DNA of 64,000 nucleotides. Source: Macrocystis pyrifera (taxonomy: Eukaryota; Sar; Phaeophyceae; Laminariales; Laminariaceae). Below, one piece after another: positions 8,380 to 31,010 of this stretch. Below the pieces are notes generated by a model. It was not told where the DNA came from, searched no databases, and saw nothing but the letters and a program-made list of their open reading frames with translations. The position numbers were made by a program, and so were the translations under genes. The stretch covers positions 860,929-924,928 of the forward strand of contig JASSKH010000002.1 in the NCBI GenBank assembly GCA_031763025.1. The letters run 5' to 3'. Every line of letters starts with the position of its first letter. The first letter of the stretch is position 1.

Positions 8380-9870
8380 GCATGGAGGCTGCTATTGACT
8401 GAAATCTCACCGGTGAACCGATTCTGCCCAAGAATAAGGATCCTTAGGCCCACCAGGTTGCCGAGCCAGTCCGGGATCGAACCTGGATACGTGGCGAGGA
8501 CAACATTGATACGAAAGGCTTAGTCTGTTGCTTCACTGCAGCATATGCGAATAGCTCGAGAAACGGCCGTACAGATACAAAACATAACTTCCCAGGACCT
8601 GACCAGAGCAAAATCAAACGCAAACCGCATGCCAGGTACATCACAAACTTCCCTGCGAAGCAAGAGAATCGAGATACTCAACTTAGCTGGAAATCACGCA
8701 TCATTTTACGTTGCAGCAGTTTTAGTAACCTAATTGGCATGAGGTCCCCAAGCCACCCGAACAACAAGACCTAAACCGGCTCAAGCAACAGCCCCCGTAC
8801 CAAACTGCGAAATTCTCAGATATGTGCTAAAAAAAGACATGTTTTACTGAATCGCAGTTCACGGACGAGCACTTCATCGCTTTACAGAATTTCTGAGTGA
8901 ATCCCCATACGCCCGGCCGCAGGTCTCTAGCGAACCTCTACAGCCATTCCCCTATTCATCATTTGTACATTCACCACAATGATTAATTCACGTTCACCCA
9001 TAGACCTTCCGTGTCGGCATAATCCAGAGAGGTTCAAGCTTGCGATTCGATCTCCCGCTGTGTTGGACCCGGCCTAGGACAACAACCTACCTACACCGAT
9101 GCCTTGTAGTTAGCTTGCGGCTATTCATGTATGGCGATTATTTCACGGGGTACGTGACTAAGTAACACCAAGTTTTGTACTCGGAGAGCACGGTCACCCA
9201 ACATTGTTCGCATTGGATTTTAAGAAGACATGCAATGGTCCTAGTTTCTCCTGTTTTCCCCATGCGCTACGTTGAACTAAGGTTACGTCCAGAAGCTTCA
9301 AGCCATATGGTCATGAATCGAAGTAACTAAACTTATATGGCATATATACATGCATTCATCATCAGTTGGTTTACACGATAGGGATATCTGCCAGCCTGCA
9401 AAACGGGCTGCTCGCGCGCGGGCGGTGCAAAAAAATCAATAAAAGAACAATCAACCCGCCACAGGGCGGGTCAGTGGATCGGTTGCAGTATCCGTCTATT
9501 CTGATCCAAGCGCAACAACCGAGTAAGTGCGACTTGGCATCCTGTGGTAGATCTGGCAAACACCGCCTAACCAATAGCACCCTAAATGCGCCACACCAGT
9601 CTCCTTTGATGAGGCTGGCATTTAGTACCTTGCAGGGTGGTGTCAAGCAACGAAGGTAATGAACTATATCCGCGTTGAATACCGAGGCATGTGCCCGAGC
9701 CCGACCCCCGAGCACGTAAGGTACGACGGTCGATGCTTATGTCAAAATACGTAAGTACGAGTGCGATCGATAGTCTCATGCACAACACCCAACTACAACG
9801 TGCGTTAGGTATGTAGCCCAGACCTCCCGCCGGCTATAGGATATCACTGTCGACACAATCGATGAACTTA
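8380..9870. repeat. Block B, copy 1 (paralogous segment)
   Basis: Colinear with 15780-17665. It begins with a single-LRR exon on the minus strand and runs through shared landmarks AATCACGC-TC-TTTTA-GTTGC, GGTTCGGCCGCAG-like text, ATTTCACGGGGTAC, the CGCGCGGGC stretch, GGTCAGT-GATC, CTATAGGATATCACTGTCGACA and GGGTACGAGTT. In both copies the minus strand is open at the centre (9371-9715 and 17124-17375). Confidence 0.65.
8411..8482 (-). CDS. Single-repeat LRR exon (72 nt, intact)
   Basis: A 72-nt exon on the minus strand, bordered by a CCAG acceptor and a G|GTGAG donor, phase 1 at both ends, so it encodes one 24-residue leucine-rich repeat with the glycine codon split across the splice sites. 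The residues read GSIPDWLGNLVGL, then a strand of R-I-L-I-L-G-Q-N, then RFTG, matching the plant-type L..L..L.L..N.L.G.IP consensus. LRRs form a curved ligand-binding solenoid, usually extracellular or in a receptor arm. It begins block B, and its flanks match those of the LRR exons at 15.8 and 16.3 kb. There is no lesion in the exon. Which transcript, if any, includes it is unknown. Confidence 0.75.
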
Positions 9871-9879
9871 GGGTACGAG

Positions 9880-10335
9880 TTCAAAAGCCGTACTGGTGCC
9901 GAACTGGGCAGCCGTGGGTTATGTCATACGTTGAGCAATATTCAAATTTATATTCATGGCTGATGATGTCACGGATACCGATCTGAACATGTTAGGGTAA
10001 TAGCGTACGTATATGGTCAAATCCTAACATCGTGTGACAGCGTTAGTACAAGCACCGTTCACGGTGTAGCAATGGTACTGGACCAGAGCTGGACAAGATC
10101 GACCAGAAACATCACGTTAAGGCGTGTACACGTTCGTGGTCTTCCAGCTAACACTGCAGTGTTACAGCGTTATCGTGATTGCTCCTTCAGTACTAACTCT
10201 GTGTTTGGACGTGGCGGTATCCCTACGTTAGGCCCCAGATCATAGACAAGTGTTATCCGAGTGTCCGGTTATCCGAGGTGTGAAACATTTCAAAGAGCAA
10301 TCTACGTGGTAAGCAGGTTATGATCGACAACTTTA
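9880..10335. other. No gene recognised
   Basis: Tail of block B, then unassigned sequence. GTGCCGAACTG near 9897 still matches 17700, after which homology fades. Confidence 0.4.
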
Positions 10336-10337
10336 CC

Positions 10338-10400
10338 ATTACGGGTGACCATAGCAAATAGGAACAAATATTGTTGGTAAAAATAGGTAAATACAAGGCT
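10338..10400. mobile_element. Left half of palindromic MITE family 1
   Basis: It starts CATTACGGGTGACCATAG, then GGAACAAATATTGTTGGTAAAAATAGGTAAATA, which matches the left arm and centre of the full copies at 29.6, 35.2 and 37.8 kb. The right arm is not recognisable. Confidence 0.6.
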
Positions 10401-10423
10401 TTCCTTCGGAGTGGGTATTCCGT

Positions 10424-10649
10424 CGTTTCTTGTACAAATACATTTAGTTTGGTTGGCTTTGGGCTATGACTTGCAGTTTTGGTTGGCTTTGGGCTTTGAC
10501 GCCAATTGCAGTTATATTGCAATTGGGGTAATAGCCCAAAGCCAACCAAACTAAATGTTATGACGCCAATTGCAGTTATATTGCCAGATATATTGCAATT
10601 GGGGCGATACCCAAAGCCAACCAAACTAAATGTATTTGTGTAAGAAACG
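10424..10649. mobile_element. 226-bp MITE with ~40-bp terminal inverted repeats
   Basis: The ends are inverted copies of each other over about 40 bases with two mismatches: CGTTTCTTGTACAAATACAT on the left, and the same with AC for GT on the right, both running on into TTAGTTTGGTTGGCTTTGGG. The interior holds further copies of the terminal sequence and two copies of CCAATTGCAGTTATATTG, so the element is a nested palindrome able to fold into a branched hairpin. It has no coding capacity; the minus-strand frame across it is a by-product. No clear target-site duplication is visible. Confidence 0.75.
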
Positions 10650-11355
10650 GTGAAGGATGTAATAATCGCGTTTATTTGTGTAATGTGAAACGTAAGATCG
10701 GGTGACGCAAGAGTAAGAAGAATGGCATTCGTCTAATAATAAGGATAACATATTTCATCAGTGCGGGGAGAGAGTGGAGTAGTGCATGGCATGTGGATGA
10801 TATACAACATACAGGCTGTGGTTTCAAGGAAGGTTCGGGACAGAGGGGAAAGCAGCAGTGCCGGCAACGACAACGGTTATGGAAATGTTGTATAGTTGCT
10901 GGGCGGGCCGCGATTTCGATTTAGCCAGCATAGGAGTTTGGGTAAGTAAGTGCTGGTCCGTGCACCGGTCGCAAACAACAGTCGGCACCAGGTCGGTCTT
11001 TGTCGTTGCCGCTCTCTTGCCGGAGGGCGAGGACCACGCGCCTCTCGACGAGGGGGAGGTGAGCTTAGGGGGCGTGGAGAAGGGAGAGGCGGGGGTTGCA
11101 GCACCAGCAGGTTCGCCACCGACAGCAGCAAGCAGCTTGGCCGCCTACAGCTGCATCTAGATGCCGTTCGTCGAGGCGAGACGCCTCTTCTAGGCGTTGT
11201 GCGAAGAGCTGTCTATTGGTTGCAGTTTGCGAAGGAAGAAGAAAGGTTGTTTGGCTGTTTGGCTGTTCGGCTGTTTCAAAGAAGAAGGGCTGTTTGCGAA
11301 GAGCTGTCTATCAGTCGGTCTGTCTGCCAAGAGCTAGCAAGTGACAACGACCTCA
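10650..11355. other. No gene recognised; G-rich and GCT-rich stretches
   Basis: Overlapping frames at 10858-11438 are open mainly because of composition. There is a degenerate repeat of GGTTGTTTGGCTGTTTGGCTG type with CGAAGAGCTGTCTAT occurring twice (about 11202 and 11298). No domain is visible. Confidence 0.4.
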
Positions 11356-11357
11356 AA

Positions 11358-11430
11358 AATCGTAATTATAGTTGTATCTATATAGGTTTTTGTGTGTACC
11401 GTAGGTCCTATTTTCTGCCCCCCGTAATAC
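11358..11430. mobile_element. Degenerate copy of MITE family 1
   Basis: The right arm is clear: ATATAGGTTTTTGTGTGTACCGTAGGTCCTATTTTCTGCCCCCCGTAATA. The left arm is worn to CGTAATTATAG. Confidence 0.5.
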
Positions 11431-11592
11431 GGGGCTAACGGGAAAAAACATGTATAAGTGCCCATTAAAAAAGGTTGCTCGACCATATGTACGCCAGAGC
11501 GCGGCCGATTAGTGTATACCAGCGAAGAGAACCGTACATCTAATCAAACAGACTATTGTGCCGGGGATCAAACAGGCATTCCCTTATACTAC

Positions 11593-11664
11593 CGGTCAGC
11601 AGATTGATGGAGACGTCAAGGGTTTCCAATGTCGCAAGCTTGCCGAGCCCTGGAGGAAACAAAC
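11593..11664 (-). CDS. Single-repeat LRR exon (72 nt, intact)
   Basis: The minus strand has a TGCAG acceptor and a G|GTAGT donor exactly 72 nt apart, phase 1 at both ends. The encoded repeat reads GLFPPGLGKLATL, then E-T-L-D-V-S-I-N-L-L-T-G, a complete 24-residue LRR with the conserved N and terminal LTG. Its sequence differs well beyond the 8.4/15.8/16.3 kb trio, so it is an older lineage. The donor GTAGT is weaker than the GTGAG or GTAAG of its sisters. It lies about 3.1 kb upstream, in the transcription sense, of the 8.4 kb exon. Confidence 0.7.
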
Positions 11665-11669
11665 CTGCA

Positions 11670-11950
11670 TTGAATATTGGCATCGAGACATCGAATGCTG
11701 ACGATTAATCCGCAAACCGGCTTCGCCACGCTTCGTTCATAAATAGTTACAAAGACAATTCATATAGATACATGCTATTGCATGAGTCATAGGTTTAGAT
11801 CCGTTCTACACCTTTAGGATTTTCGTCCTCTACGGAAACAAATGCTTCAGCCTGGCGGGGCTCCCAAACCGTTCAAATTAACTAGGTACTAAATGACTTT
11901 GCACACGACGTGTGTTTTGACACCATCTCAAAATTAATCTAGACCACCGC
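11670..11950. other. Intron-like sequence, nothing recognised
   Basis: No open frame with a motif and no repeat with a second copy in the window. Confidence 0.4.
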
Positions 11951-12725
11951 GTAGGTTACACATTTTGTCGCAGCCAGGTGTATGGTGGAAAATATACCTT
12001 CCTAGGGGACTCGTTATGGTGAGAGTGTCATCCCTTCCGTATCACGCATTAACGTGCTCGGAATGGGAAGGAGGGTGGACTTGTATCAATCAACTCCTGG
12101 TGATGTTACGATAACCGCTTTAAGGTACAGTCTATACACTTTCCCACTGCTGTACTCGTTTTTGGGGTATAACGTTGGCGGTACATAGGGGTAATTAAAA
12201 GCGTGTGATGATACTTTGGAAATTGAACCTCAAATCTTGACAGAGAACCGTGTCACTGAAGAACAAGGCATGAGCCATCGTGTTCTCCATCTGGTGATAA
12301 CAAGGGGATGGGTGTCACCACAACTTCGGCGTAGATCTATTTCGGGGGACCATATTAAATATGTACATATATGGGGCTTTGTGTACACCGAAGGTCCTGC
12401 TAACTATGTTCCCCCGATATATAGGTGGTTTGGAGGGTGGGAAAATGGTGATATGCTGGTAGATAGCTGCTAAGAATCAGGACCAAATATGATTGGTTTG
12501 AAAACGAAATGAGTTACCACCGGGAGGATCGTCGATCACGAAAACTGCCTTTTGCAGCAGAAAAAGCAACGCTCCCCGAAGGGTGTGGCAAGGGAGCTCC
12601 CTTGGCTGGACGGTCGCCGACAACCCTGTTTCGAACTGACGTTTTGGCATGCATCGCGTCGTGAGTAAGATTTGAGTGTGACACGATGCTCAGGTAGACT
12701 ATCAACACGGCCGAGAGCCTTTCGG
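11950..12725. repeat. Block D, copy 3
   Basis: Colinear with 45-630 and partly with 2695-2970; see the first copy for landmarks. It is interrupted by a MITE at 12338-12422 that the other copies lack, so the MITE inserted after duplication. Confidence 0.6.
12338..12422. mobile_element. Short copy of MITE family 1
   Basis: The ends TATTTCGGGGGACCATA and TAACTATGTTCCCCCGATATA are imperfect inverted repeats flanked by TA on both sides. The centre GGGGCTTTGTGTACACCGAAGGTCCTG matches the family. About 85 bp. Confidence 0.6.
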
Positions 12726-12729
12726 GCAA

Positions 12730-13060
12730 ATGCTTGAATGCCGAGAATGAAAAGGGAGAATACCAGCAACCAGAAAAAACAGGACACTGCGCTGGTGCCG
12801 TGCTGTAAATGGGTTGTGCAAGACGTCTCAGGCCGGTGTTGGGATTCGCACACGACCGCACGCCTGACAAGACCCGAAACCCTCTGCCAGTTACACATTT
12901 TTCTTTTGTTATCTGTCGCATTGCTTGTTCGTGTGACACTGACACAAAAGTTGATCTTCGTTTGAGTGCACGCGATTCGAATACACAACTCCTTCGGACA
13001 TTTCTGATCTGGAAACTACAGTAATTATCTTTGTGGTCTTGTCTGTAGCGAACGACGGTC
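12730..13060. other. No gene recognised
   Basis: Only antisense-type frames; no second copy in the window. Confidence 0.4.
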
Positions 13061-14690
13061 ATGACCGCGACGTACACTTCACGATCGCTGCAAAAATGCG
13101 TTGTAGATCAATATCAATACCATATTTGTTGACCCTGTTCTCTCAGACCCCTTCCGCGTTTATTAACCGTATTTTTTCGTTGTTCGTGCTAGCGCGAGAT
13201 AGAGGTCGACCTCACCGGACGAAACTGCCTCATCGTGATCCCCGATCCCGACCGTGTCGGGGTCGGCTTCGGGCGTGCTCGCGCCGTGCCCTGGCTGCCG
13301 GCTGGCTGGGTGTGAAAACTTCAGCTCAGTGTTGGACTAATCGAGTTGTTGACACCTGATTTATCACAGTCTCGTGGCCAAATAATTTGTGTGTCGCCCT
13401 ACCTGTGCTCTGTCAGGCCTACGGCTCATCAAACCTTCTTCTAAAATTAAATAGTTATTATGCCAGCACCCAGAGTGTACCTCTTCTCGTTTGTTCGAAA
13501 CCGGAGAGGCCGGATCCTCCGCGGCATCGACAGCTCATGGATGCAAAAATGTGGGGAATATGTGCTGGGGTGGCCGGCCTCACCCTCTTCCGTTGCTTGT
13601 GCCTCGAGGGTTGGACGTTCCAAAAACGACTGTCGAAATTCCGATTCGGGCTACTTTAGTTGTGAAAGCTCGAGTTCTGCGCAAAAATGTTGACATTCGT
13701 TAGCGAGCCTATGGTCGCGAAACGGGTGTCGTGCTTCTTCGGCTGCTGTTCACGCCGGCCGTCTAGACTCCGTGGGGCAGAGAGGACGGGGTCTTTGTCG
13801 TCGACCGAATCGGATGAGCCTACGCCGCGAGAGGAGCGGCACGGTGATGAAGGCGTACAAACGGTGTCTACGTTTTAGATTTTTTGTACACGCAGCACTC
13901 ACTGGCGGGCGGTTGTCGCATGAATCGTTGAGTTTTAGTAGTGTTGTGAAGGCGTTTGTTTCTTATGTAACGCACAGACAAAATTGAGGTTTATTTGTTC
14001 TGGAAGAGTACATGACGGGCTACGCTCACCCTGCAACATCTTTCGTTGCTGACCCTCGAAGGTATAATTGTGTCCGTCCTCGTCGTGGCTACTGCTGTAG
14101 AGATGAATTGAGTGCATGTTGGTGGTTTGCCCCCGTCTACGCCAACTGCCGTAGAGACGAAAGGGGTGCTTGTTGATGATTTCTTCCTTGCTCCGCCTAC
14201 TACAGTGGAGCCGAACGGAGTGCATGTTGATTATTTCCTATCACCTCTGTCCACTGCTGTGGAGACGAATGAAGTGCATCTTGATGATTTTCCTCTCGCC
14301 TCTGCCACTCTCAGTACGAGTAGAACTGAATGCAGTGCACGTGGATGACTTTCTCCCGCCCCCGCCGCTAGCGTGAATAGAGTTGAATGGAGTATAACAG
14401 AAGGGTTTTCTCCCGCCTCTGCGTACAAAAACAAATGGCGATGACTTACGACCTCAGGGCGAGTTTCCCCCTACGCCCCACAATAAAATAATGAGCATGG
14501 TCTATGATTTTGGTTCCCCCTTCGATCACCGTGCTTCCCTACCCCGAATGCCGTGCCGGGGTGGCCTCGGGCGTGCGTGATGTACTGCTTGCTGGTGCTG
14601 CCGCCGCCGCTGCGTTGTTGCTGCTGCTTGCTGCTGCTGAGTTCGCTCCACTAACGTACTCGCCGGCGCTTCGTACTGTGGATTAGGTTG
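13060..14690. repeat. Dispersed repeat family E, copy 1
   Basis: About 1.6 kb that is colinear with 39590-41400. Shared landmarks in order are GTTGACCCTGT-CTCTCAG, GACGAAACTGCCTCATCGT, GCCGTGCCCTGGCTGCCGGC, GAGAGGCCG-ATCCTCCGCGGC, TGTGGGGAATATG, AAAAATGTTGA, CCTCTTCGGCTGCTGT-CAC-like text, GACGGGGTCTT, ACCGAATCGGATGA, and a distal CTG/GCC-rich part with CGTGCTTCCCTACCCCG. No conserved long frame is seen, so it may be a non-autonomous element. It appears to interrupt a third copy of block A, whose 3' part resumes at 14705. Confidence 0.6.
14050..14420. repeat. 54-bp minisatellite, about six units, 18-codon period
   Basis: Units of 54 bp run in tandem, for example from 14099, 14153, 14207 and 14261. 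Each contains GAG-CGAA-GG-GTGCATGTTGATGATTT-like text followed by a C/T-rich half. Because 54 is divisible by three, the plus strand at 14112-14348 reads a repeated peptide with core VHVDDF and TAVETNG. The array sits inside family E copy 1 and is missing from the copy at 40.7 kb, so it expanded locally. Whether it is ever translated is unknown. Confidence 0.7.
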
Positions 14691-14704
14691 ATCGACTTGC
14701 ATGG

Positions 14705-14990: not shown

Positions 14991-15615
14991 TGCACGGCGT
15001 TTAATAGCCAAGGCCACCAAGCTAATATTGGCCATCGTCGCTTACATCATTTGTGAACAACCTGACGCAAGAGCTAGCCACGTGGCGGGACATACTGTTT
15101 CGGTTTAAATGCTTTGTGGTCAGTATTTGGGTCGTTCTTATCGGAGAGCTTTTTTCCATCTTTTCCATGTTTAATTTCGCGCAATTTTTTCATCCTTCAG
15201 ATTTTCCTGACTGCTTTTTCCAAATATGTGAAATGTAACAGACCTGAGGTTTTTGGTTGTGGAGAATTTTACGAATAGTGACAGAACGCCTCCGTGTCTT
15301 GATACATATCTCAAATTATTTCCAAGCTTTGGAAATTCTGGAAAAAACGCTCTCCGGTAAGAATGAGCCTGAGACGCGGTGCGGAACAAATGTGAGTCAA
15401 TTTGTAGATCTTGATGAAGGAGGTATATACTAAATGGCATTATAGTTGCTGTTTAAATGCACAACGTCACCACTAACATCCCTTTACTCACAAAATGCAT
15501 AACGCGAAAGGTTCTTAACATTGGTTCATCGAGATTCCTATATCGGAAAAACAAGCATACACTTGTCTCAGCCATCCTAAGTCTGCGAAAATAAAGCCCG
15601 GCGTTGTACTGAAGC
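14990..15615. other. No gene recognised
   Basis: T-rich stretch near 15140-15260; no motif or paralogue seen. Confidence 0.4.
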
Positions 15616-15794
15616 CTTAGTTTGTCACTAGCTCAATACCAACCACATCTAGAAAAAGTGTGAATCTCCCATCTTGCATTTTGAAGACTTGCGTCTAGGT
15701 TTGAATACGGTGGCGCACCCACGTCGATTGTAATAGAAAGAGTTTTATAAACGTTTGAAACTTTCATCGAGGCAGGTATTGACGGACAGCTCAC

Positions 15795-15866
15795 CGGTAA
15801 GCTGATTGTTCCTGAGGTCGAGGGTCGTGAGCGCCACCAGGTTGCCAAGACAGTCCGGAATCGAAC
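15795..15866 (-). CDS. Single-repeat LRR exon (72 nt, intact)
   Basis: The minus strand has an AATCCAG acceptor and a CCG|GTGAGC donor 72 nt apart, phase 1-1. It encodes one LRR: GSIPDCLGNLVAL, then T-T-L-D-L-R-N-N-Q-L-T-G. It is the downstream member, in the coding sense, of a 459-bp tandem pair with the exon at 16254-16325. The two exons differ at 9 of 72 nucleotides. By my codon-by-codon comparison that gives five amino-acid changes and three silent codons, and three of the changes fall on the exposed positions of the L..L.L..N strand. No stop or frameshift. Confidence 0.78.
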
Positions 15867-16253
15867 CTGGATTCGTGGCGAGCGATATATGATGCCAGGA
15901 GAGGATAGGTCTGTTGCTTCGGTGCTGTACACACGACACGGCCGTACTGAAACAAGACATAATTATTCCAAGACCTGACTTGAGCAAAAGCAAGCGTAAA
16001 CCGCGTATCGGGTACACGGCGAAATTCGATGCGAAACAAGCGAACCGAGATACTGAATAATACAGGGGTACTAAAGCCTTAGTTGTCCCTAGCCCAATAC
16101 CAACCACAGCTTGAAAACGTGTGAATATCTCCTCTTACATGTTGAAGAGTGACGTCTAGGTTTGAATACGGCAGCGTACCCACGTCGATTGGAATTGAAA
16201 AGTTCCATAAACTTGGGAACTTTCATCGAGGCAGGCGTTGACGGACATCTCAC

Positions 16254-16325
16254 CGGTGAACTGATTGTTCCCTAGGTCGAGGATCTTGAGCGCCACCAGA
16301 TTGCTCAGACAGTCCGGAATCGAAC
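16254..16325 (-). CDS. Single-repeat LRR exon (72 nt, intact)
   Basis: The minus strand has an AATCCAG acceptor and an ACCG|GTGAGA donor 72 nt apart, phase 1-1. The repeat reads GSIPDCLSNLVAL, then K-I-L-D-L-G-N-N-Q-F-T-G. It is the upstream member of the tandem pair with 15795-15866. Spliced to its neighbour across an intron of about 387 bp, the frame stays open and two consecutive LRRs result. The intron flanks are homologous to each other and to those of the 8.4 kb exon. Confidence 0.78.
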
Positions 16326-16539
16326 CTGGATTCGTGGCGCGCGATGTAACGACAGGAGAGGATCGTTCTGTTGCTTCCTTGCTGCCCCAACGATATACAC
16401 ACGACACGGCCGTACTGAAACAAGGCGGAAGTTTCCAAGACCTTACTCGAGAAATAAAAAACGTAAACCGCGTGTGAGGTACACTGCGAAATTTGATTCA
16501 AAGCAAGAGAACCGAAATGCTGAACCCTGCAAGAAATCA

Positions 16540-17665
16540 CGCGTCCTTTTATGTTGCGCAGTTTCCGATCTCGTGCGGGTGTCTCAATGACGCAGTCAAC
16601 AAAACGTGCGTAGGCTTAGTCACAGTCGTCGTAAAAAACCACGCACAGCGCCTTCGTGTTTTGAAATGCGTCGATTTTGACTGAATCGTAGTGAACGGGA
16701 ATGTACTTTATCGTTTCGCTGAAAACGTTATAGTTAATCGCTGCAGGTTCGGCCGCAGATATTTGTCGAGCCTCTCCAGCCATTCCACCACTCGCCATTA
16801 CACATTCACCGCCAAATTTTGGCCGCATTCACCTGCACACATTTCGTGTCGGCTTCTCCCAGTGCGATGAAGCCTTGCGATATGATTCCTCATTGTTTAG
16901 AGCACGGCCAAGCACAATAACGCACCTATTATACCGGTTCCTCGTAACTAGCAGGCGGCTGTTCATGGGTGGCAATCATTTCACGGGGTACATGGCTAGG
17001 TGAAAACGTATCTCGTGCGCGGCAAGCAACGTTGTTCGCACTTGGTTCCTAAAACACTTGACTGAGCTAATATTAGGTCCAAAAGCGTCAGGTCGTTATT
17101 CTTAATGTTACTAGCAATCAAACCTACATGACATACAGGCATTTGCCAACGGATAATATACCTAGTACACTATAGGGATACTCTACGACCGAAACTGTGA
17201 ACCGCCCACGCGCGGGCTTCGTTAACAATTCAATACAATAACAGATATGCCGGCCACAACGCAGGTCAGTAGATCCGTGGCAGCATCCGTCTGGTCTGAC
17301 CCACACGTAACAAACCGTTAAGTTCGACTTGGAATCCCTCAGTAGAGCTGGCAAATATTGCCTCACTGACAGCACGCTGAAGACGACACCGCAGTATCAT
17401 GCTTCCTTTCGTGAGGTCGGCATATATATATTACTGTGCAGGGTTGTGTGAAGTACCGAAGGTTGATAGCAATATCCGCATAGAATACCGGGGCACGGAT
17501 CCGAGCCCGACCCTCGACCACGAAAGGTACGACCGCCGACACCTTAACAAATGGCGAAAGGACGACTGCGACCGCCTGATGTACATTATCTAGGTTTACT
17601 GCTCTTCACGCACGTAGTCCAAACCTTCCGCTGGCATGATGAATATAACTGTCGACAAAGATTCC
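16540..17665. repeat. Block B, copy 2 (remainder)
   Basis: Continuation of the homology to 8650-9870; see copy 1. The central minus-strand frame at 17124-17375 reads LPALLRDSKSNL where copy 1 reads LPDLPQDAKSHL, followed in both by a V/I-R-x-D-G-x-C and STD pattern, without a frameshift between them. Confidence 0.6.
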
Positions 17666-19600
17666 GGACTCGGGGTACGAGTTGAAAAACCGTTTTCGTG
17701 CCCGAACTGAGAAGACGTGGGCTACGTCAGGTACGAACTAGCATTTCTGGTCACATTAAGATCTTATTTGTTTGCTGTTTACATCATCTGCAACACACAT
17801 TAGGAAAGCTGGGCACGGGTCTTCCGCTTCACACGGCTACACAAGACCATGCACTCACCTAGAGAGTATTAGGGTCGCGGACAATGCATGAAAGTAATAT
17901 TTTAACCTAAAGGTTTATCTATTGTACACGGCACCAAACAAGACTGTAAATTTTCAGGAATATTAACAACAAAAGCAAGTCTGTCACATCGCCAACATGT
18001 TGGGCAGCTCGGTATTCGGGTAGAGCCATGGATGCACAAGAGCACTCAAATGTACAATCGCCACAGCTTTATACTTCGAGTACTCATAAATACAGAACGA
18101 TTCAAAACCCCGCGCGCATTGAAGTGGACAATATATCACAGAGTCGGCAGTATTGCTTGCGTCTCACTTTTGTTTTTAACAGTTAATGAAACACAATCCA
18201 GGCGACAGTCAAGTTGGTGGTATGCAGGACCCTCTCACTGCGGGCAGCAAAGGCAACATCCAAATCACCCTAAACCAACAGAGCGTTTAGCTGTACTTAG
18301 TCTAGAACCCGAACGATCGACAACACAACCTTGCCCTCAGACACACTTCAACCGAACCCACGATCGTTCGTCGGATCAGCAAACGGTCAACGCGCCAGAA
18401 CAGGAAACGTTTCCGATGTATTAAGTCACTAAACATGGCACAAATATATAGCCAGATATAAAGAAAAAGACATACCCCGCCGTTTTGAACTGCGTCGTGC
18501 TATCTGCGCTGTTTAGAAATGCCAAAGCGTTCGCTTGGTAGATTACTGTGAGCACGTTTGCGCTCCTATCTACATGAAAGGACCATCGATGACGAAGACT
18601 GACGTCCAGCAGTATTTCGGTAGGTATTGCGTTCGACCTAACGAACATATTCTCCCCCGGAGCAAACGGTCATCGTGCGGTCGCCATCGACGACGCAGCC
18701 GAAGGGCACGAACAAAACGCCCCCTCCGCGGAATAGACTTCACGTCTTTTACTGGATATTCGATTGAATCGTGTACGTCACCGACGCTGTCCTGAGCGAC
18801 CATTTTACATTTTGGGGGAGAGCCGTGCCCGGTGGGGTGTTTAAAGATGGCGAAGAAATATCGGTCGGCCGAGTGTAGTTCAGGCATGTGGAGGGTTTCG
18901 CCGGACTGGAAAACAAAATCGTGAACAAACACTGGATAGAACGCATCGTTCGAAACAGCACTAACTCTGGAATCAGCGCCAAGCATGGTTGATTGTTTGA
19001 CAGAGAAAACACAAGCGCAAGCGTCGTTTGAGCTCTAGTGATATCAGCCTTACAAGAATCGTTTTTGTCGGCTGTTATCGTCGAAAAGACTTGACGAGAC
19101 CACCAACCTGTTCAATGCTAAAAAGTCCACCTGAACTCAAGCATATAATTGCTAATAATTTAGCAAGGACTCACGTCACACGTCACGGCAATCGGGGCAC
19201 CGCACCATTCCTGTGCTCTTGACTTAATGTCTACCTCTCACAAAGAACCTCGGCCTGAAAAACAGTACCCGCGCAGTCCCATGAGCCGTCTCGTGGGCGT
19301 TAGACACACGATCTACACGACCAAAAACTGAGAAAACGAATCGGATTGTATATATAGAACTGCATACCGTACGGCTTCCTCGGCTATGATCGACCGCCAG
19401 TCACAAATTTGGGCTCTGACGCACCTCCCCTGCTACTGTCCTGTTACGTCGAGGTGATTTGTCCCGAGTAAATGTGACCAAACCCTCTGGGACTTGGCTC
19501 CTGGGTTTCAAACTTCGATGTATCATTCCGTCAAATCTCGTTGTGAAGCGACAGCGCCATTTCTCACCCGAGAGTCTACTTCTCATGTGCTCCTGAAATT
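17665..19600. other. No gene firmly recognised
   Basis: The first bases still resemble the end of block B. A minus-strand frame at 18570-18986 (138 residues from its first start) has mixed, protein-like composition, with a Phe/Tyr-rich first half and an Arg-rich second half, but no domain I can name. A plus-strand frame at 18032-18424 is equally anonymous. Both may be chance. Confidence 0.3.
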
Positions 19601-22983: not shown

Positions 22984-23017
22984 ACCCGAACCCGAACCCG
23001 AACCCGAACCCGAACCC
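22984..23017. repeat. (ACCCGA)n hexamer repeat, about 5 units
   Basis: Perfect tandem CCCGAA units. One base away from the CCCTAA telomere-type hexamer, but there is no CCCTAA unit here. Confidence 0.9.
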
Positions 23018-23019
23018 TA

Positions 23020-25690
23020 TGCCAGTGGTCAGTGCTGAGATGCTGTGCTTCAGAAGAAACAGCAGCAGCAACCGTGGCGGGCAATACATGGTGGACCCAG
23101 CAACATGTCGATCTCGCGAATCAAGCACCAACCGTGCTTGAAGCACGACGCGCCGACGCGGTGGCGCACGTAGGCTGAAAGGGCATAATTACACAACATA
23201 AAAAACCGGTCTCGATATTGACAGTTGCAAAAGTGAAAGTTGCTGCTCAACTGCTGTGGCCATTAGCGCTTTCCAGCTGCTTCTGCTTGCCGTCTTCGTA
23301 TAGCAGCGGCTGCAGCGCGGTTTGTGTGCCGTGGCCGCAGCTCATGGATTGCCGTTTCTACTCTACTTCCTTCTACTTTTTCAAGCTTTTTCGGTTTGTC
23401 GTGCAGGTTTGCTCCTCGGTCCGACACGGCACCAATGGCTTGTAATGTCAGGTTTGATTTGTTCTGTGCGCGACCGCAACCAAAACTTGACAGCAAAAAC
23501 ATTTAACGTCATTTAGTATCACGTTGCAAACTTCGCCAAACAATTATTGACGCTAAAATCTTGATATTGAAATACATAGCCCGTCCTCATCATATCTCAC
23601 CGCGCGCCCTGCAATACACCGTACGGCTCACACGGCAGACGATACGTGGAACGCAAACCCGCACAAACCCCGAAGTACGCGTTGAAGAAACAACCAATAT
23701 CGGCGATGTGTTGTTTTGATAAATCGACCATTCCCCCGTCGTATCACGGCATAGACTGCGGTGTACAAAAGTTGGGAGGAGACGGCAGACAGGGTAGCGA
23801 GACACCAGGCCAACTACTAGGAGCAAAAGGAGTCTGTATATACTACTCGCGCTGCCCACGGATGCAGCTGGTTCAAACGTGATTATCGCTTTGTTCGGTC
23901 TTGCGTATTATTCCTCTTTGATTTTGGTTTTATTACTTTTAATTTTTCTTCTTTCTTGTCCGTATGTAGGGAGTGCTGTGACGGGGGTGGATAATGAGCC
24001 TGCTCTGTTTGTTTCGTGTTGTCTGACGTATCATGGGGCATGGTTGACGAATACAGGACGGACACGGCAGGTATGGTAGCGAGTTAGCAGACGAATTACT
24101 GTCCGTATTACGTAGAACCTGTCTATGCTACTAGTACCACAAACTGCTGCTGCTGGCTAGAGGGTGATTTCACATTTTGTTGTGCTTTGGGTTGCTGCTT
24201 GTTACTCATCTTGATTCTTAGTCGTATTATATTAGTATTGTCGTATCTGTCAATTTTGCACCAATAGTGGTATTGTTTGTTTTTTCTCTTTCTATATTGT
24301 CTGCCATATCCCCTACGGGGGGTCACAACGCTTTCCCCTCTGCCTTAGATTCGGCCGGCCGGAGGCTCATACCTAGAGTTACTACTACCGCGTTGACTGT
24401 CTGGCAATCAACGCGGCAATTCGTCGCAGGAAATGCGTACCAGGTAAAACAACACGAAAAAAACTGATGTCGCTGACGACGGTACACCTCGCTATCAACG
24501 ATGGACGGGCGGCATGGCCTGTTTTTTCGAGCCTCGTTTTACGTTGGTGTGCTGTTCCGGAGCTGTGATATCGCTCACAGAGTGATACTCAACAACAGTT
24601 TTCCAGTAGCTTTCTTGAATAGAGATCCGTCCCCCTTGTGTACGTTCCAAATTTCGTTTGTGTCATATATTTCACATGATAATGTGACAACTCAATCCAT
24701 CTACGGCGACGTTCGTAACGTACCCGGCGTACAAAGAGCTGCAACAAAAAACAAATGTTGACGGTTCAAACGTTCGGCCCCCTTATCGTACTGTCGCAAC
24801 AGAGCTAGACACGGTCGAGAGCAGAAGAGTTTGCACCTATACCATAGGGGTGTGACATCAAATATACCTTAGCGCCAACAAGACACTGGCAGACTGTGGT
24901 TGGGAGAAAGCTACGGCATGGTCAATGACGTACGGTATGCTATACTCCAGAAGGTGTGGGAACAACGACAATCATCGCCGTCAACACTACGAGAGCGGAG
25001 TTTGCTCAACGGGTACACCATCGCATATGCGAGACGAAGCAGTGCGTTTTCTGTCTGCCGAAATGCTCAGACAAATAATGTCCCATAGACCTACGGTTAG
25101 ATCGCCGACGCTTTCATAGCATGAACGCAGCTTCGAGGCCCCGATGTCACCACGTCACCATTGCCGAATGCCTGACGAGAGTGGAGGCGTCATAGTAAGC
25201 CTCGACAATGCAAGCATGGGCTAAACCTAAAAATGCAGGCTAACCGCGTTAACAGCCGAACAAGAACTTACGAGTCCATTACCCAAAGTTCAAACGGGCC
25301 TTCAGCCCAAGCAGCGCAGCAACATCCCTATCGCTGAACACAAACTGCGCGCCGAGTAGATGAGCGTTTGCCTAGAATCAAGCAGAGGGGATTACGATTA
25401 TAACTACATTCAGCGCGCCAGGTCAATTACATATAACTTAATGTGGGTAGTATGCAGATCATGATCGACTCGGAACGGAACAGGGTGCCTTATGAGACTA
25501 GATGCGGCGTCCTGTTGATTTCGACCTCGTAGACTTACGATCTTGACTGGGGTTTTGCGAAACTCACCTTGTCACGTCTGTTCAAAAACCAGTTCCACAT
25601 CAAAAACAAGTGCTAGCCACACGCCAGGAGCCTTGCCACTGTTGAGCCCGACAGAGTATCTATTTTAGGCTTGACACTGGCCAGGTACAT
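23020..25690. other. No gene recognised
   Basis: Frames near 23.2-23.5 kb and 23.6-23.9 kb overlap on both strands without a motif. Near 24390-24417 there is a perfect 9-bp hairpin, CCGCGTTGA and TCAACGCGG around an 11-base loop. GGTAGCGAG occurs at 23793 and 24075. Confidence 0.4.
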
Positions 25691-26190
25691 CTCGATTTGT
25701 CTACTTTGTCTAGCTTTAAATTGTTTTGGCAAGATTCACAGACAATCAGATAGGCCATACATTACAATGTTTCACACCCCGGACAGCTCATGGGCTAGTC
25801 CAGCTCGTGAGCTAGTTCATCTATCGTGTATAGCTCAAGCTTCGAAAATATGCGCAGATGAGCTACCGCCTATAGCTCAAGCCGGGGGGAACATGTGTAA
25901 CTCATGTAACTCCTATAGCTCATCTAGGGCGCAGATGAGCTAGCTCATGTAGTTCCTATAGCCCAGACTGAGACAGTGTGTGTAGATGAGCTATCTTTTG
26001 TAGCGAAAACATTCAAAACATGTGCAGATGATCTACCACCTATAGCTCAAGCCTTCAAAACATGTGCACACGAGCTACCGCCTGTATCTCAAGCACGGGA
26101 AACATGTGCAGATGAGCTACCGCCTACAGCTCACCCCCGAAAAATGAAATCATAGCTCATGCACGCAGCTCATTGCAGCTCTTTCTTGGC
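25690..26190. repeat. AGCTC-rich tandem array, block 1
   Basis: Degenerate tandem units of about 42 bp with core ACATGTGCAGATGAGCTACC, then GCCTATAGCTCAAGC. AGCT tetramers occur every 15-25 bases. Some units are replaced by a TAGCTCATGTAGCTC variant. The 5' flank ACAATCAGATAGGCCA matches the flank that follows block 2. Confidence 0.8.
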
Positions 26191-26272
26191 AACACAAGGG
26201 TGTAAGATAAGTAGCCGAAAAATCCCACCCTTCAGGACTACTGCGTATGCATAGGAATAATATGGCTTCGGC

Positions 26273-26512
26273 CTAGGTTTGGTCATTGTCCTTATCCATA
26301 TCGATGACGTTGTTCGTGGGATCCACATCTATCGATGGATCCGGTTGCTGCCCGCCGCCCTGGTCTACGCCCGAAGCGCCGCTAGAGCTGCTTCTCCGGG
26401 TCGTGGGCGTGCTAGAGGTGTTTCTGTGTGGTGTCGATGTTGTGTTCTGTTCGAGCGCCTCTTGTGGTGTGCATGGTGACAGCTGACAGCTGCTGTACAT
26501 AGAAGTTGTCAA
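26273..26512 (-). other. Ser/Thr/Pro-rich frame, 79 residues
   Basis: Minus-strand frame between the two AGCTC blocks. It is rich in S, T, P and Q, with an acidic C-terminal DMDKDNDQ. There is no domain and no second copy. It could be the tail of a decayed element or a chance frame. Confidence 0.2.
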
Positions 26513-26654
26513 AAAACGGGAATTAAAAAATTATGTTGGGTGTCGACCTATCGTCAGGTATCACAACAACGGATCCGATCTCATACCATATCAAATACTG
26601 CTGTATCTGGTACGTACACAACATATGGGGTTGTTTGTGTTGATATCGTTCTAT

Positions 26655-27095
26655 TCTGCGTACTTGTATAGGTCATTCATACAGCTCATGAACTACAGTA
26701 GCTCATCTATCCCCTGTAGCTCAAGCTTGGAAAACATGTCCAGGTGAGATATCGCCTATAGCTCAAGCTTTGAAAACATGTGCAGATGAGCTACCGCTTA
26801 TAGCTCAAGCTTCGAAAACATGCGCAGATGAGCTGCCGCCTGTAGGTCAAGCCGGGGAAAACATGTCTAGCTCATGTAGCTCATCTGGGGGGTAGATGAG
26901 CTAGTTCATGTAGCTCCTATAGCTCACACCGGACATATACGTGCAGATGCGCTATTCCCTATAGCTCAAGCTTGGAACACATGTGCAGATGAGTTACCCT
27001 CTTACAGCTCAAGTCAGCAAAACGTGCATAGCTCACGTAGCTCACGTAGCTCGCCAGTAAGCTACCGTGAGCTGAACTGTCCGAGGTGTGCAATG
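26655..27095. repeat. AGCTC-rich tandem array, block 2
   Basis: Same orientation and same succession of unit variants as block 1: CAGCTCATG-ACTA, then ordinary units, then the CCGGGGAAAACATGT-TAGCTCATG variant, then GCAGATGAGCTAG-TCATGTAG-TCCTATAGC. The parallel order shows a higher-order duplication with a period near 0.9 kb rather than independent growth. Confidence 0.8.
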
Positions 27096-27300
27096 TTTAG
27101 CTCTTCGTGTTGTGCGTAGTTTCTGGTCCCTTGGTTTCCATTCTTATGCCTAAACTATGCACGTATCTTGCTATATACCCAGTTTTTGAGTCAATCAGAG
27201 AGGCCACAATACAGGGTTGTGTCACTCCGTACTAGGTTTACGGTCCCTGGGTCGCCATTCATATATCTAAACGATGTACGTACACAGATAAAACATGCCT
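27095..27300. repeat. Two ~110-bp tandem units after the AGCTC array
   Basis: GTTTCTGGTCCCTTGGTTTCC-ATTCTTATGCCTAAACTATGCACGTA at 27117 is repeated in diverged form at 27236 as GTTTACGGTCCCTGGGTCGCCATTCATATATCTAAACGATGTACGTA. Confidence 0.6.
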
Positions 27301-27840
27301 AGGCTGGTTTCCCTAATCCCTCTGGGGTGTACGCCGTGCTTTAATTGATATAATATATACTCGTTTGAAGTACAGCATCGTCGACACAGACGGAAGTCCG
27401 TCTGCCTCACCCAACGTCGACGTGGGCTCAGGTTTGATTCGGCAATAACATCTCACAGGCCGGGCGATTCCGCGAGGATCGTGGAGACGCTTCATAAATC
27501 GTACTTGGGGGAGTGCGCCAGAACAACGTCTCGTCGTGCGCCCGCCGTGGCGAAATTAAAGATGCCTGGTGACCCTCAGCAGGTCAAAATCATTCCCGCG
27601 ATGCCTACGTCAACCAAAACAAACAAAAATATATTTTGATGGCCATGCGCTCCATATTCCGGCGCAAAAAAAAACGAATGTTTGTCCTTGCTTATGGCCA
27701 GAAACACCGCTCGTCGCGTATACGGTTCACTTTGTATCAGTTTGAAATTGTGTTTGGCTTTAAACGGAACAGGAGCCACCTGATGTAGGTTTTTTACCTG
27801 TGTTTTTCCCTCTGCAATGGTGTTAAAATATACCGATACC
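27300..27840. other. No gene recognised
   Basis: A perfect 14-bp palindrome, GACGGAAGTCCGTC apart from its centre, lies near 27391. Nothing else stands out. Confidence 0.4.
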
Positions 27841-27845
27841 ATTAC

Positions 27846-27904
27846 CGGTTTGGCGTTTCTGGTGAGTGATACTTTCAGGGGACGTTCAAGACAAACCGGA
27901 ATAA
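27846..27904 (-). pseudogene. Decayed single-repeat LRR exon (59 nt)
   Basis: The minus strand has a TCCAG acceptor and a CCG|GTAATG donor. The segment between reads VIPVCLE then V-S-L-T-R-N and ends with the usual split glycine, like GSIPDCLG and D-L-R-N-N in the intact exons, but it is 13 nt short of 72, which breaks the phase. I read it as an LRR exon disabled by a small deletion; chance similarity is possible. Confidence 0.4.
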
Positions 27905-29020
27905 CTGGACATCGACAGCAACCTTGGGCAATCGGCCAAGCCTACAAACACGAAGCTACGATTTTTCTTTTGTTTTCGTGTTACGGTTACACCCAAAGAA
28001 AGTCCTAGCATAGTATCGAGCTTTAACTGGTCTGAAGGGCAATAGATTGTCAGAATACTTCTCGCGGCTACGAGGCTATGGTCCCTGAACGTAGAGCCTG
28101 CTGTTGATGAAATTGATTGCTCTCATGAAGTCCTGTTGACAAACCTCCAAGTTAATACTGCCTGCACCCGACGGATGAACCACACGGCAACATGAGGTCC
28201 ATTTTCACAGTACCGGACACCCACGCGGAACAGTCGACTGGCGATAGCTCTTCGTGAACACCTTCGGTAACATTGTCCATGATTCCAGGAGTTAGGGTCA
28301 CATATGCTCTTGAACATACACGGGGCGCAAGGCCTGCAACAACGACAATATGAACTTGCGTTGGTCCCAACACGTCCTTGTGCGTCCACAGCAGCGACCC
28401 TAAACGCACCATAAGCGACGCTCTGTGTCAGAGTGAGATAACACCCCACATCCTCAGCAGTATGGTCAAACCACAGGGCCGTAGGTAGAACAAGAGGTTC
28501 AAGTCATCTCACCATATTAGGTATCGAGTCAAAATGTACTCACTCTCCGTAATGTATCTCTTGCCATACGTCGGGGAAAATTAGTACGACTACAAGCGAA
28601 TGCGAGTTTACAATGCGCACGGCAACTTACAGTTACCCCGTTGGGGAGAGTTATGTGACCGACCATCCGCCCGATCGACCGGGATCTAATGTTTCAACAA
28701 CTTGACGGGATAGCCTTCTGCTGAAGTTCACAGAAACTGCTACGGTGGTAGTATACGCACCTGCGGCCAGGCATAGAGAGAGCAGCCGACGTAAGACACA
28801 CCGAGCAGAATAACCGCCGTGACGAAACCTTCAAGCACGTACATGGACGCAAGAAGTCAACGAGGCAATGATTCTTCATCTAGCGTGGCAGGCCATCCAT
28901 CAACGCCCCGAGATCACGCAAAACAGATATTGTGAACAGTTCTGCGACAGTTATTCGTGGTGTTGGCGAATATCTCCACATTAGGGGTGTGTCGTGTACA
29001 CTTTTGCTGTGCGTACCATC
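27905..29020. other. No gene recognised
   Basis: Overlapping minus-strand frames at 28123-28449 are anonymous and Cys/Arg-rich. No repeats with a second copy in the window. Confidence 0.4.
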
Positions 29021-29275
29021 TGAAGAGGCGTTCTACGATAGACCTTCACCCGAACGTTTCTGAGGATCCTCACTGTAAGGAGCTCTATACTTCACGTGGA
29101 AACTGAATTATGCGAAACAAAGATTGCATCCCGATGAGTAATCCCATGGTCCAAGTGTACCAAATCGTCACTTGTTGAAACTTGATCGGCATTCCGACGA
29201 TTTTGGCTTAAGGAACCCCGTCATCCAGGAAACATTTTAGCGAAAACGTGTTGCCTCTATAGTAGAGTGTGCCTA
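29020..29275. repeat. Repeat F, copy 2
   Basis: Direct copy of 19605-19875; landmarks are given there. It ends at CTCTATAGTAGAG. Confidence 0.6.
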
Positions 29276-29620
29276 AACGGTTATCCGCCAACACTGCGCA
29301 CACGTGCGAGTATCGTCGCCGGTCTGGGTTCGGTGCCGTTCACGAGTGTGCAACCGCTTGAAACCACTGCGAGACTGGCGTTTCGATTATATCGGCACTC
29401 CGTGGACTATGCAAGCCGAGGCAAGCCTAAACAGCCAAAAATATAGCATGGCCCACTACGCAGACTAAACTGCGTTATCGACCGTTTACAACAGTTCATG
29501 CTTTACCGCGTACAGGCCGAAACCAGCTAAACTTTTCGAGTATGTCAAAAGGATCGCGACATGAAAATGAGGTATATGTTGTCAAATGCCATACATACTG
29601 TTCGCCTCCAGTCTAAGTCG

Positions 29621-29732
29621 ACTATTACGGGGGTTCATAGTTAACGGGACCAAATTTGTTAGTAAAAATACGTAAATATATAGGTTTTTATGTATACCAT
29701 AGGTCCTGTTAACTATGGACCCCCGTAATAGT
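29621..29732. mobile_element. Palindromic MITE family 1, full copy
   Basis: 112 bp. The left end ACTATTACGGGGGTTCATAG and right end CTATGGACCCCCGTAATAGT are near-perfect inverted repeats continuing through GTTAACGGGACC and GGTCCTGTTAAC. The AT-rich centre is AAATTTGTTAGTAAAAATACGTAAATATATAGG. If the outer TA is a target duplication, the element proper runs from TTACGG to CCGTAA, which fits Tc1/mariner-like insertion at TA. It lies about 100 bp downstream, in the coding sense, of the LRR exon at 29.87 kb, so inside an intron. Confidence 0.8.
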
Positions 29733-29829
29733 ACGCCGTAAACCGTCTAATGGCCATGGTACAACGCGGGATGATCCACCCCATCCAATATAGGTTCAAT
29801 GGTGTTTTGCCGGTGGTACACTTGCTTAC

Positions 29830-29901
29830 CTGTCACTCTGTTTCCGCTTAGATTAAGCGTTGTGAGATAATCCAACTGGCCGATATCCGGCGGTAATGTA
29901 C
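29830..29901 (-). CDS. Single-repeat LRR exon (72 nt, intact)
   Basis: The minus strand has a GCGCAG acceptor and an ACAG|GTAAGC donor 72 nt apart, phase 1-1. The repeat reads GTLPPDIGQLDYL, then T-T-L-N-L-S-G-N-R-V-T-G, a textbook plant-type LRR. It lies 890 bp downstream of the cap exon at 30792-31010, whose donor is also phase 1, so cap and repeat join in frame. This pair is the best candidate for the head of a living LRR gene in the left half. No further intact LRR exon is found downstream until 16.3 kb. Confidence 0.8.
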
Positions 29902-30791
29902 CTGCGCGGCGGGCATCAAGTAAAGGGATCACTCGATTTTGAGCAAGAACAATTTCAACCTGAAATGTGAGACGATCATCGATGACTTCATAACGTACCA
30001 GGTACACCGAGTGATGACAAAACATTAGTTCACTACTCGTAGCACGTCAGTGGTCTTCAGCAAGAATTCGGCGAAGGTTGGGTCTACGCAAGTGGTTTTC
30101 AAGGCCGGATCGTGCAATAGAATACCAACGCCCGAACTTGACAAAACAAAGCACAAGAAACTTGTGGCTGGGCGCCCGGCGGTTCTTTAGCCGTACCCAG
30201 ACAACGTTGTACAAATATATGGGATCATCACTGGCATTAAGCCGAACCGAAAAGGGGAGACGACGTCATACAACCTGGAAACTAGTGACGGTTCAACACG
30301 GCCTCGTTGTTTAACAAAATTCCAACAGGTGGGTGGGTTGGTGCACAAATCAGGACAACGAAACCTATCAATACGTGAGCTAAAGTTAGGTATTCGATGC
30401 TCACGGGAACCAAATAAAATAGCAGAACGTTTGCATTCTAACTAAGGTCTACTGCATAAAACGCAACTTATGGAACACAGATATTGTATCCCGACAGCGT
30501 TACGTATGATTCTACGGAGGTGGGACATTTTAATCAACAAATTTGTCACTGACGGAACTCCTGAACAAAGGACCTACCCAATATCGTCGAAACGCGTTTT
30601 GCTTCCGATAATGTAGTATTGGTGACGTACTAGGTCGTGGAAGTGTTCGTCTGATCAGACGTAAACTAGTCCCTGAAATTCATCGTCCGGTTGGAGTATG
30701 GACCTTTACACAGTAGAATCTCAGAACATTCACGTCCATGACTCGGGAACGGTGGTATTCGAAAGTGTAGAAACTGGCACAGTTTTCTTAC
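29902..30791 (-). other. Probable intron between LRR cap and LRR exon
   Basis: It starts GTAAGA (minus strand at 30791) and ends CGCGCAG. About 890 bp. It contains no recognisable exon; part of it near 30470-30600 loosely resembles repeat F. Confidence 0.5.
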
Positions 30792-31010
30792 CGCGAACAT
30801 AGATGATTTCTTTCCCCCGAGTGAAGGTCCCTGGTATACAGCTTCCTATTAGCTCCAACTTGACCAGTCGTCCTTTGGCGTTCAGTGTGACGCCATACCA
30901 CGTGCCCAGATCGTTTGAATTGTTCTCCCAGCCTTGTTGGTTAAACCACAAGTCCCCACCCGTCGTCCGGTACAAGGCCAGGAGCACTGTACGTTCTGAT
31001 CGTACCGGAC
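30792..31010 (-). CDS. LRR N-terminal cap exon (219 nt)
   Basis: A 73-codon exon on the minus strand with a TTCGACAG acceptor and a CGCG|GTAAGA donor, phase 1 at both ends. It reads SERTVLLALYRTTGGDLW, then W-containing QQGWENNS and LGTWYGVTLN, then GRLVKLELIG. This is the capping domain that precedes the first LRR in plant-type and brown-algal LRR proteins, with the expected paired Trp residues. The exon starts at a splice acceptor, so a signal-peptide or leader exon should lie above 31.0 kb; I could not find it. Spliced to 29830-29901 the frame remains open. Worn paralogues are at 32420-32620 and 22700-22860. Confidence 0.75.

What the first reader, a model, noticed from the sequence alone, without database searches (positions are those of the whole stretch)
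8411..31010. A dispersed set of interchangeable one-repeat LRR exons
Five intact exons (8411-8482, 11593-11664, 15795-15866, 16254-16325, 29830-29901) are each exactly 72 nt, one 24-residue LRR, with phase 1 at both borders and a split glycine. The cap exon (30792-31010) is also phase 1-1. All lie on the minus strand. Such exons can be duplicated, deleted, swapped or alternatively joined with no loss of frame, so the region behaves like a cassette bank for a receptor binding face. Published work on Ectocarpus (Zambounis and co-workers, from memory) proposed exon shuffling in LRR-ROCO genes; here the cassettes sit some 30-55 kb from a ROCO gene on the same strand.
Basis: partly seen in the sequence, partly recalled or inferred. 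Interest (0 to 1): 0.85.

Follow-up and report, generated by a model that had tools for sequence, protein, structure and literature searches.

The report
Repeat exons of giant kelp receptor gene
The scattered 72-base exons are real and form the binding-domain part of one very long immune-receptor-like gene of a type already known from brown algae, and following them led to a larger set of near-identical exons elsewhere in the same genome that differ almost only in their putative binding residues.

Summary
Observation confirmed: five 72-nt, phase 1-1, minus-strand LRR exons and a 219-nt cap exon lie where stated. The genome's size and contig number match giant kelp (Macrocystis pyrifera). Reading beyond the window shows what they are: nine more intact 72-nt LRR exons follow downstream, then ROC exons and a COR region. 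The "dispersed cassette bank" is the N-terminal LRR part of one ~72-kb LRR-ROCO gene; cap and 14 LRR exons join into 408 stop-free residues. The ROCO at 58-63 kb is a separate upstream paralogue. Exons multiplied by segmental duplication with flanking intron. Framework codons are constrained (nonsynonymous change about a quarter of synonymous); exposed codons change at about the synonymous rate. The ROC-COR part carries frame breaks, so this copy is probably a recent pseudogene, unless these are assembly errors. The architecture was published for four other brown algae in 2024: a new member of a known kind. By-product: an LRR exon core present in 72 exact copies elsewhere, many in tandem arrays; in 40 copies read, a 13-nt stretch coding exposed residues is hypervariable. 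Exon joining and somatic rearrangement could not be tested.

The parts
30792..31010 (-). N-terminal LRR cap exon, 219 nt, phase 1-1
   Evidence: homologous cap ending RG|GTAAG in a neighbouring LRR-ROCO gene; cap plus LRR, joined by hand without the cap's last 12 residues, matches 3 Bacteroidota plasmid records at 34-39%; cap alone has no PDB match and only a sub-threshold Pfam LRR hit
29830..29901 (-). LRR exon, 72 nt, phase 1-1
16254..16325 (-). LRR exon, 72 nt, phase 1-1 (family A)
15795..15866 (-). LRR exon, 72 nt, phase 1-1 (family A, tandem copy of 16254)
11593..11664 (-). LRR exon, 72 nt, phase 1-1; weak donor GTAGTA
8411..8482 (-). LRR exon, 72 nt, phase 1-1 (family A)
2093..2157 (-). 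decayed LRR exon (in-frame stop)
   Evidence: nhmmer E 2e-7; sequence
4189..4217 (-). possible further decayed LRR exon, weak
   Evidence: nhmmer E 0.2
15606..16524 (.). tandem duplication, two copies (15606-16057 and 16068-16524, 82% identical), each with an LRR exon
8332..9926 (.). segmental duplicate of 16172-17729 (about 66% identical over 1546 aligned bases), an LRR exon in each
58450..63098 (-). separate upstream neighbour: ROC exons and a COR-position region of another LRR-ROCO gene, in open frames; 58450-58923 assigned by position only
   Evidence: its COR-position stretch matches no Pfam family

Best explanation
The exons are the cap and first five LRR repeats of one LRR-ROCO gene on the minus strand, about 72 kb from the cap at window 31010 to a COR region that ends 41.4 kb left of the window start. 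SHOWN: one recognisable cap, 14 intact 72-nt phase 1-1 LRR exons, then ROC exons and a COR region, on one strand in that order; LRR exons sit in duplicated blocks that include intron, so the gene grew by repeated segmental duplication. SHOWN: framework codons are under purifying selection, exposed codons are not. INFERRED: because every border is phase 1 inside a Gly codon, gain, loss or skipping of a unit keeps the frame, so repeat number and binding face can change without breaking the protein; ligand binding would signal through the ROC GTPase. INFERRED (about 0.6): this copy has recently lost function, since its ROC-COR part has frame breaks.
For: LRR exons continue left of the window. ROC pieces there are 39-79% identical to the neighbour (best E 6e-30) and the COR region 41-58% (E 7e-56); part of it matches Pfam COR-B at E 8e-5, 23 bits, below the cut-off of 27. 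Cap + 14 LRR exons join to 408 residues, 0 stops; introns as known 387-13,504 nt. A paralogue at C200:1044.6-1062.4 kb has the same order: cap, LRR exons (six with borders checked: five of 72 nt, one of 69; a seventh partial hit left out), ROC. Duplicated blocks along the gene. Five exon pairs: core nonsynonymous 16 of 185 sites against core synonymous 23 of 70 (one-sided p 6e-6) and exposed nonsynonymous 24 of 74 (one-sided p 6e-6).
Against: No transcript was seen. ROC-COR frames are broken here. Only one cap was found in the 264 kb, but the neighbour's own cap was not found in the 100 kb upstream of it either, so a diverged second cap could be missed. Three intact LRR exons have GC donors and one GTAGTA; two have decayed. 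Family A alone gives only P 0.05-0.11 for constraint, and in its duplicates the exon is not the most conserved stretch (6.7% and 43% of windows equal or exceed it). The start exon and the link from the last LRR exon to ROC were not found. The five pairs were meant to be independent, but no tree of family B was built.
Confidence: 0.86

Rival explanations
1. A free-standing bank of LRR cassettes that is spliced or recombined into the neighbouring ROCO gene.
For: Interchangeable phase 1-1 exons, same strand as the ROCO at 58-63 kb.
Against: The cassettes lie downstream of that gene's 3' end, have their own cap, and are followed by their own ROC and COR region. That gene has LRR-like exons upstream at 64.3 kb (12 bits) and 65.7 kb (frame changes inside it).
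Confidence: 0.04
2. Wholly dead relic: a pseudogene long since free of selection, with exons intact by luck.
For: Frame breaks in ROC-COR; decayed exons at 2093-2157 and -331; most duplicates only 64-70% identical.
Against: Core nonsynonymous change is about a quarter of synonymous since the duplications; 14 LRR exons keep frame and length. Loss, if real, must be recent.
Confidence: 0.15
3. LRR-only or receptor-kinase gene rather than ROCO.
For: Exon ends of the same type also occur within about 12 kb of kinase-domain hits at C219:11.40-11.80 Mb.
Against: ROC and COR follow on the same strand with no second cap found between.
Confidence: 0.05

Closest known systems
Brown algal LRR-ROCO genes (Teng et al. 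2024, PMC11378527, parts 1-4 of 6 read; Zambounis et al. 2012, not held, known through Teng and from memory)
   Same: One LRR per 72-bp exon with nt 3-71 coding 23 residues, N-terminal LRRs followed by ROC; variable exposed residues. Teng reports alternative splicing, positive selection at sites 14, 16, 18, 19, and a COR match by hmmsearch in only 18 of 111 genes.
   Different: Not one of Teng's four species, though Teng mentions Macrocystis ROCO genes induced by an oxylipin. Very long (about 72 kb, introns to 13.5 kb); 3 of 14 LRR exons have GC donors; ROC-COR frames broken in this copy. Gene lengths and splice sites of Teng's genes were not seen.
Lamprey variable lymphocyte receptors (from memory)
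   Same: LRR modules as units of diversity, exposed residues variable.
   Different: Those modules are joined somatically; nothing of that kind was tested or shown here.
Bacteroidota cap-plus-LRR proteins (Hymenobacter, Flammeovirga plasmids)
   Same: Cap and LRR align at 34-39% over 95-100% of a 108-residue query in 3 records.
   Different: Parts of long bacterial genes; ROC or COR in them was not looked for.

Membership tests
Brown algal LRR-ROCO | N-terminal LRR domain | tested here: met
   Cap plus 14 LRR exons
Brown algal LRR-ROCO | Each LRR in a 72-bp exon, nt 3-71 coding | tested here: met
   14 of 14 intact LRR exons; found with a profile of such exons, so other lengths could be missed
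Brown algal LRR-ROCO | ROC domain downstream | tested here: met
   ROC pieces 39-79% identical to the neighbour's ROC, best E 6e-30; the neighbour's joined ROC matches Pfam Roc at 1e-16
Brown algal LRR-ROCO | COR domain (detected by Teng in 18 of 111 genes) | tested here: inconclusive
   Region conserved with the neighbour (E 7e-56); Pfam COR-B E 8e-5, 23 bits against a cut-off of 27 in one piece, none in the other piece or in the neighbour
Brown algal LRR-ROCO | Open reading frame through ROC-COR | tested here: not met
   Frame changes in ROC-COR exons; may be assembly error. This bears on whether it works, not on descent; Teng counts pseudogenes in the family.
Brown algal LRR-ROCO | Positively selected exposed LRR sites | tested here: inconclusive
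   Exposed N 24 of 74 vs S 5 of 16, ratio about 1, p 1.0: free of constraint, positive selection not shown
Brown algal LRR-ROCO | Alternative splicing of LRR exons | not testable with these tools
   No transcripts available
VLR-like somatic assembly | Somatic rearrangement of LRR modules | not testable with these tools
   One haploid assembly only

The most novel reading that the evidence does not exclude
Giant kelp LRR exons are the site of focused diversification: a ~13-nt window coding exposed LRR residues changes far faster than the rest of the exon and its introns, either by a targeted mutational or conversion process or by extreme diversifying selection amid homogenising tandem arrays. 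A 48-nt exon core has 72 exact copies genome-wide. Of 40 such exons read from six contigs (35 with the exact core), 10 differ in length and 6 break frame; in the 30 of 75 nt, nt 53-65 have diversity 0.355 against 0.016 for the rest of the exon. In the finding's own gene, all 4 exon differences between two copies 98.4% identical over 3790 bases are nonsynonymous, three in nt 53-65 and one at nt 70.
Probability: 0.3. Interest if true: 0.9.

Novelty: new member of a known kind. Interest (0 to 1): 0.5.

Why it matters
It shows the published brown algal LRR-ROCO exon design in what matches giant kelp, shows how such a gene grows (exon plus intron segmental duplication), and separates framework from binding-face evolution within one gene. 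The hypervariable exon arrays found on the way would, if confirmed by accurate reads and in several individuals, make the proposal that brown algae diversify receptors directly testable.

Tried and rejected
Cassettes as part of the 58-63 kb ROCO: rejected by position and by their own ROC and COR region. Broken cap donor: suspected because the cap runs 12 residues past an LRR-like Gly, dropped when the paralogue's cap showed a similar long tail and donor. Strong conservation of family A exons over their introns: suggested, not upheld; the test over all families replaced it. Its exposed positions (13, 14, 16, 18, 19, 21) are Teng's four plus two that I chose.

No relatives in viral contigs, genome contigs or phages; no Rfam match at gathering scores and no tRNA; the cap alone has no PDB match. 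Pfam LRR_1 over the whole genome gave nothing, in the controls either. The Roc and kinase listings, which are lower bounds, have no hit on the small contigs that hold the arrays, so the array gene's other domains are unknown. The 20 loci that one search returned were only scanned for LRR exons (two weak hits). PMC12913910, on Ecklonia, came up with ROCO in its text and was not read. An earlier count said that over 80 of the first 101 places are one exon; the recount is 71 of 100.
Full report
WHAT WAS CLAIMED AND WHAT IS THERE. All five exons and the cap exon are as described: 72 nt (cap 219 nt), minus strand, AG before, GT after, phase 1 on both sides, a Gly codon split across each junction. 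Open AG..GT stretches of 66, 69, 72 or 75 nt are common by chance (770 on both strands), so the evidence lies in the LRR content. A profile finds five strong hits, all minus, and a decayed one at 2093-2157; leave-one-out scores are strong for the three similar exons and weak for 11593 and 29830. Joined with the cap they match Pfam LRR_1 at E 3.9e-21.

WHICH GENOME. The window is C200:860929-924928 of a 537,376,219-base genome in 223 contigs. The giant kelp assembly is described as 537 Mb with 223 contigs, from a haploid female gametophyte with PacBio and Hi-C (PMC10498591, passages). That match is my inference; the genome handle has no name.

WHAT IT IS. With 100 kb fetched on each side, LRR exons of the same kind continue to the left on the minus strand. 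Coordinates below zero count from the window start. Intact 72-nt phase 1-1 exons start at -4379, -6439, -12680, -18776, -20532, -25561, -26933, -28865 and -30690. A truncated one lies at -331. ROC pieces follow at about -35.9 to -39.4 kb, 39-79% identical to the neighbour's, and a COR region at -40.6 to -41.4 kb, 41-58%; one piece of the latter matches Pfam COR-B below its cut-off. Only one cap was found in the 264 kb; the neighbour's own cap was not found either, so this absence is soft. Cap and 14 LRR exons join into 408 residues without a stop; introns as known are 387 to 13,504 nt; cap to the end of the COR region is 72,446 nt. The finding is therefore the N-terminal LRR part of one LRR-ROCO gene, and the ROCO at 58-63 kb is its upstream neighbour. 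A third gene at C200:1044.6-1062.4 kb has cap, LRR exons and ROC in the same order; six LRR exons were checked, five of 72 nt and one of 69, and a seventh partial hit was left out. Pattern, cap and Roc hits point to a fourth, mirror-image gene at 1108.6-1124.6 kb, which was not read.

HOW IT GREW. Exons lie in duplicated blocks that include introns: 15606-16057 with 16068-16524 (82%), 8332-9926 with 16172-17729 (about 66%), and many blocks of about 64-70% identity along the gene. The youngest pair of exon blocks, 3.8 kb around the exons at -12680 and -6439, has 62 mismatches in 3790 aligned bases. This is duplication of exon-plus-intron units, mostly old, not recent mobility of bare exons.

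SELECTION. Family A alone is weak evidence: the exon is not the most conserved stretch and constraint given its divergence has P 0.05-0.11. Across families the signal is clear. In five exon pairs, core nonsynonymous differences are 16 of 185 sites, core synonymous 23 of 70 (one-sided p 6e-6), exposed nonsynonymous 24 of 74 (one-sided p 6e-6 against core), exposed synonymous 5 of 16 (p 1.0 against exposed nonsynonymous). Counts are sums, rounded, tested; the pairs were chosen to be independent, but no tree of family B was built. Framework residues were kept; exposed residues changed at about the synonymous rate. Positive selection as such is not shown.

IS THIS COPY ALIVE? ROC motifs are recognisable, but reading frames change within the switch exon, twice within the -38.8 to -39.4 kb exon and once within the COR region, and the P-loop exon shows a compensated pair. 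The neighbour's ROC and COR-position exons are open, and the third gene's ROC exons align in single pieces (its COR region was not fetched). A recent pseudogene is likeliest; assembly error is possible. Teng et al. also count pseudogenes among Ectocarpus ROCO genes.

SPLICE SITES. Three of 14 LRR exons here and four of six in the third gene have GC donors. Genome-wide, an LRR donor-end pattern has 61 GT matches against 1 in its reversed control, and 14 GC matches against 1; the GC ones lie only on C199:3.835-3.846 Mb and C200:0.834-1.116 Mb. One search for brown alga, GC-AG and intron listed three papers, none by its title on this subject.

WHAT IS KNOWN. Teng et al. 2024 (PMC11378527; parts 1-4 of 6 read) describe 111 ROCO genes in four brown algae, 72-bp LRR exons with nt 3-71 coding 23 residues, alternative splicing and four positively selected sites, and credit Zambounis 2012 (not held) with exon shuffling and a proposal of somatic recombination. 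So the architecture is published; this is a new member.

WHERE THE TRAIL LED. An LRR acceptor-end pattern has 341 matches genome-wide against 145 in its reversed control; of the 100 places listed, 71 are one near-identical exon repeated along small contigs, often about 11.7 kb apart. An exact 48-nt core of it occurs 72 times (reversed control 0). I read 40 copies from six contigs: all those listed for C160, C149, C1, C79 and C129, and three of four for C101; 35 of the 40 have the exact core. Thirty are 75 nt, ten are not, six break frame. In the thirty, nt 53-65 have diversity 0.355, the rest of the exon 0.016; codons 18-21 vary more at positions 1 and 2 (0.436) than at 3 (0.138); 19 distinct four-codon combinations occur. 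Flank diversity is 0.008 (140 nt upstream, 20 copies), 0.043 (59 nt upstream, 40 copies), 0.017 (62 nt downstream, 40 copies) and 0.040 with 14 indels (110 nt downstream, 20 copies), so length changes are not unique to the exon. A different LRR exon end, free to vary in the pattern at codons 18, 19 and 21, shows the same 33 letters in 16 matches on 14 contigs, 12 of which also hold the array exon: an internal control against general error. Low diversity at third positions favours selection on residues; frame-breaking lengths favour a mutational process or an assembly artefact.

IN THE FINDING'S OWN GENE the 4 exon differences of the youngest duplicate fall at nt 59, 63, 65 and 70, all nonsynonymous. 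At the flank rate, P is 1.0e-3 for three or more in nt 53-65, 1.5e-4 for four or more in nt 53-70, and 0.026 for four or more in the whole exon; the windows were noticed after both data sets had been seen. The effect is not general. Among near-identical exon ends printed, two pairs are identical and one differs silently (C219, C201/C210), and of four pairs between the third and fourth gene one is identical, two differ silently and one has a nonsynonymous change; a pair at C199:3.835/3.837 Mb does differ only at exposed codons 16 and 21. Searches for kelp, hypervariable and leucine-rich repeat (0 papers) and for brown alga, hypervariable, LRR and exon (1 paper, on fungal immunity by its title) list nothing on it in this library.

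Noticed in passing
G000 contigs C1, C7, C8, C11, C24, C73, C79, C82, C101, C103, C113, C129, C149, C153, C160, C161, C169, C187, C196: Near-identical LRR exons, on many of these contigs in tandem and often about 11.7 kb apart, hypervariable at nt 53-65 in the 40 read. Cap-like hits lie on many of the same contigs.
   Followed up: partly
L044-L045 (C200:1044500-1064300) and window coordinates -30690, -26933, -25561: GC splice donors at LRR exons, four of six and three of 14; with the pattern used, confined to C199 and C200.
   Followed up: partly
C219:11.40-11.80 Mb: LRR exon ends of the same type interleaved with kinase-domain hits, a possible LRR receptor-kinase cluster.
   Followed up: no
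window 48687-49572 +: Reverse transcriptase fragments (Pfam RVT_1, E 9e-10 and 1e-5).
   Followed up: no
window 29621-29736, 35205-35318, 37781-37894: Three copies of a ~114-nt element 87-89% identical, with inverted ends, MITE-like; the first lies 93 nt from the LRR exon at 29830.
   Followed up: no
window coordinate 70682-70741 +: LRR fragment on the opposite strand right of the window (34 bits).
   Followed up: no
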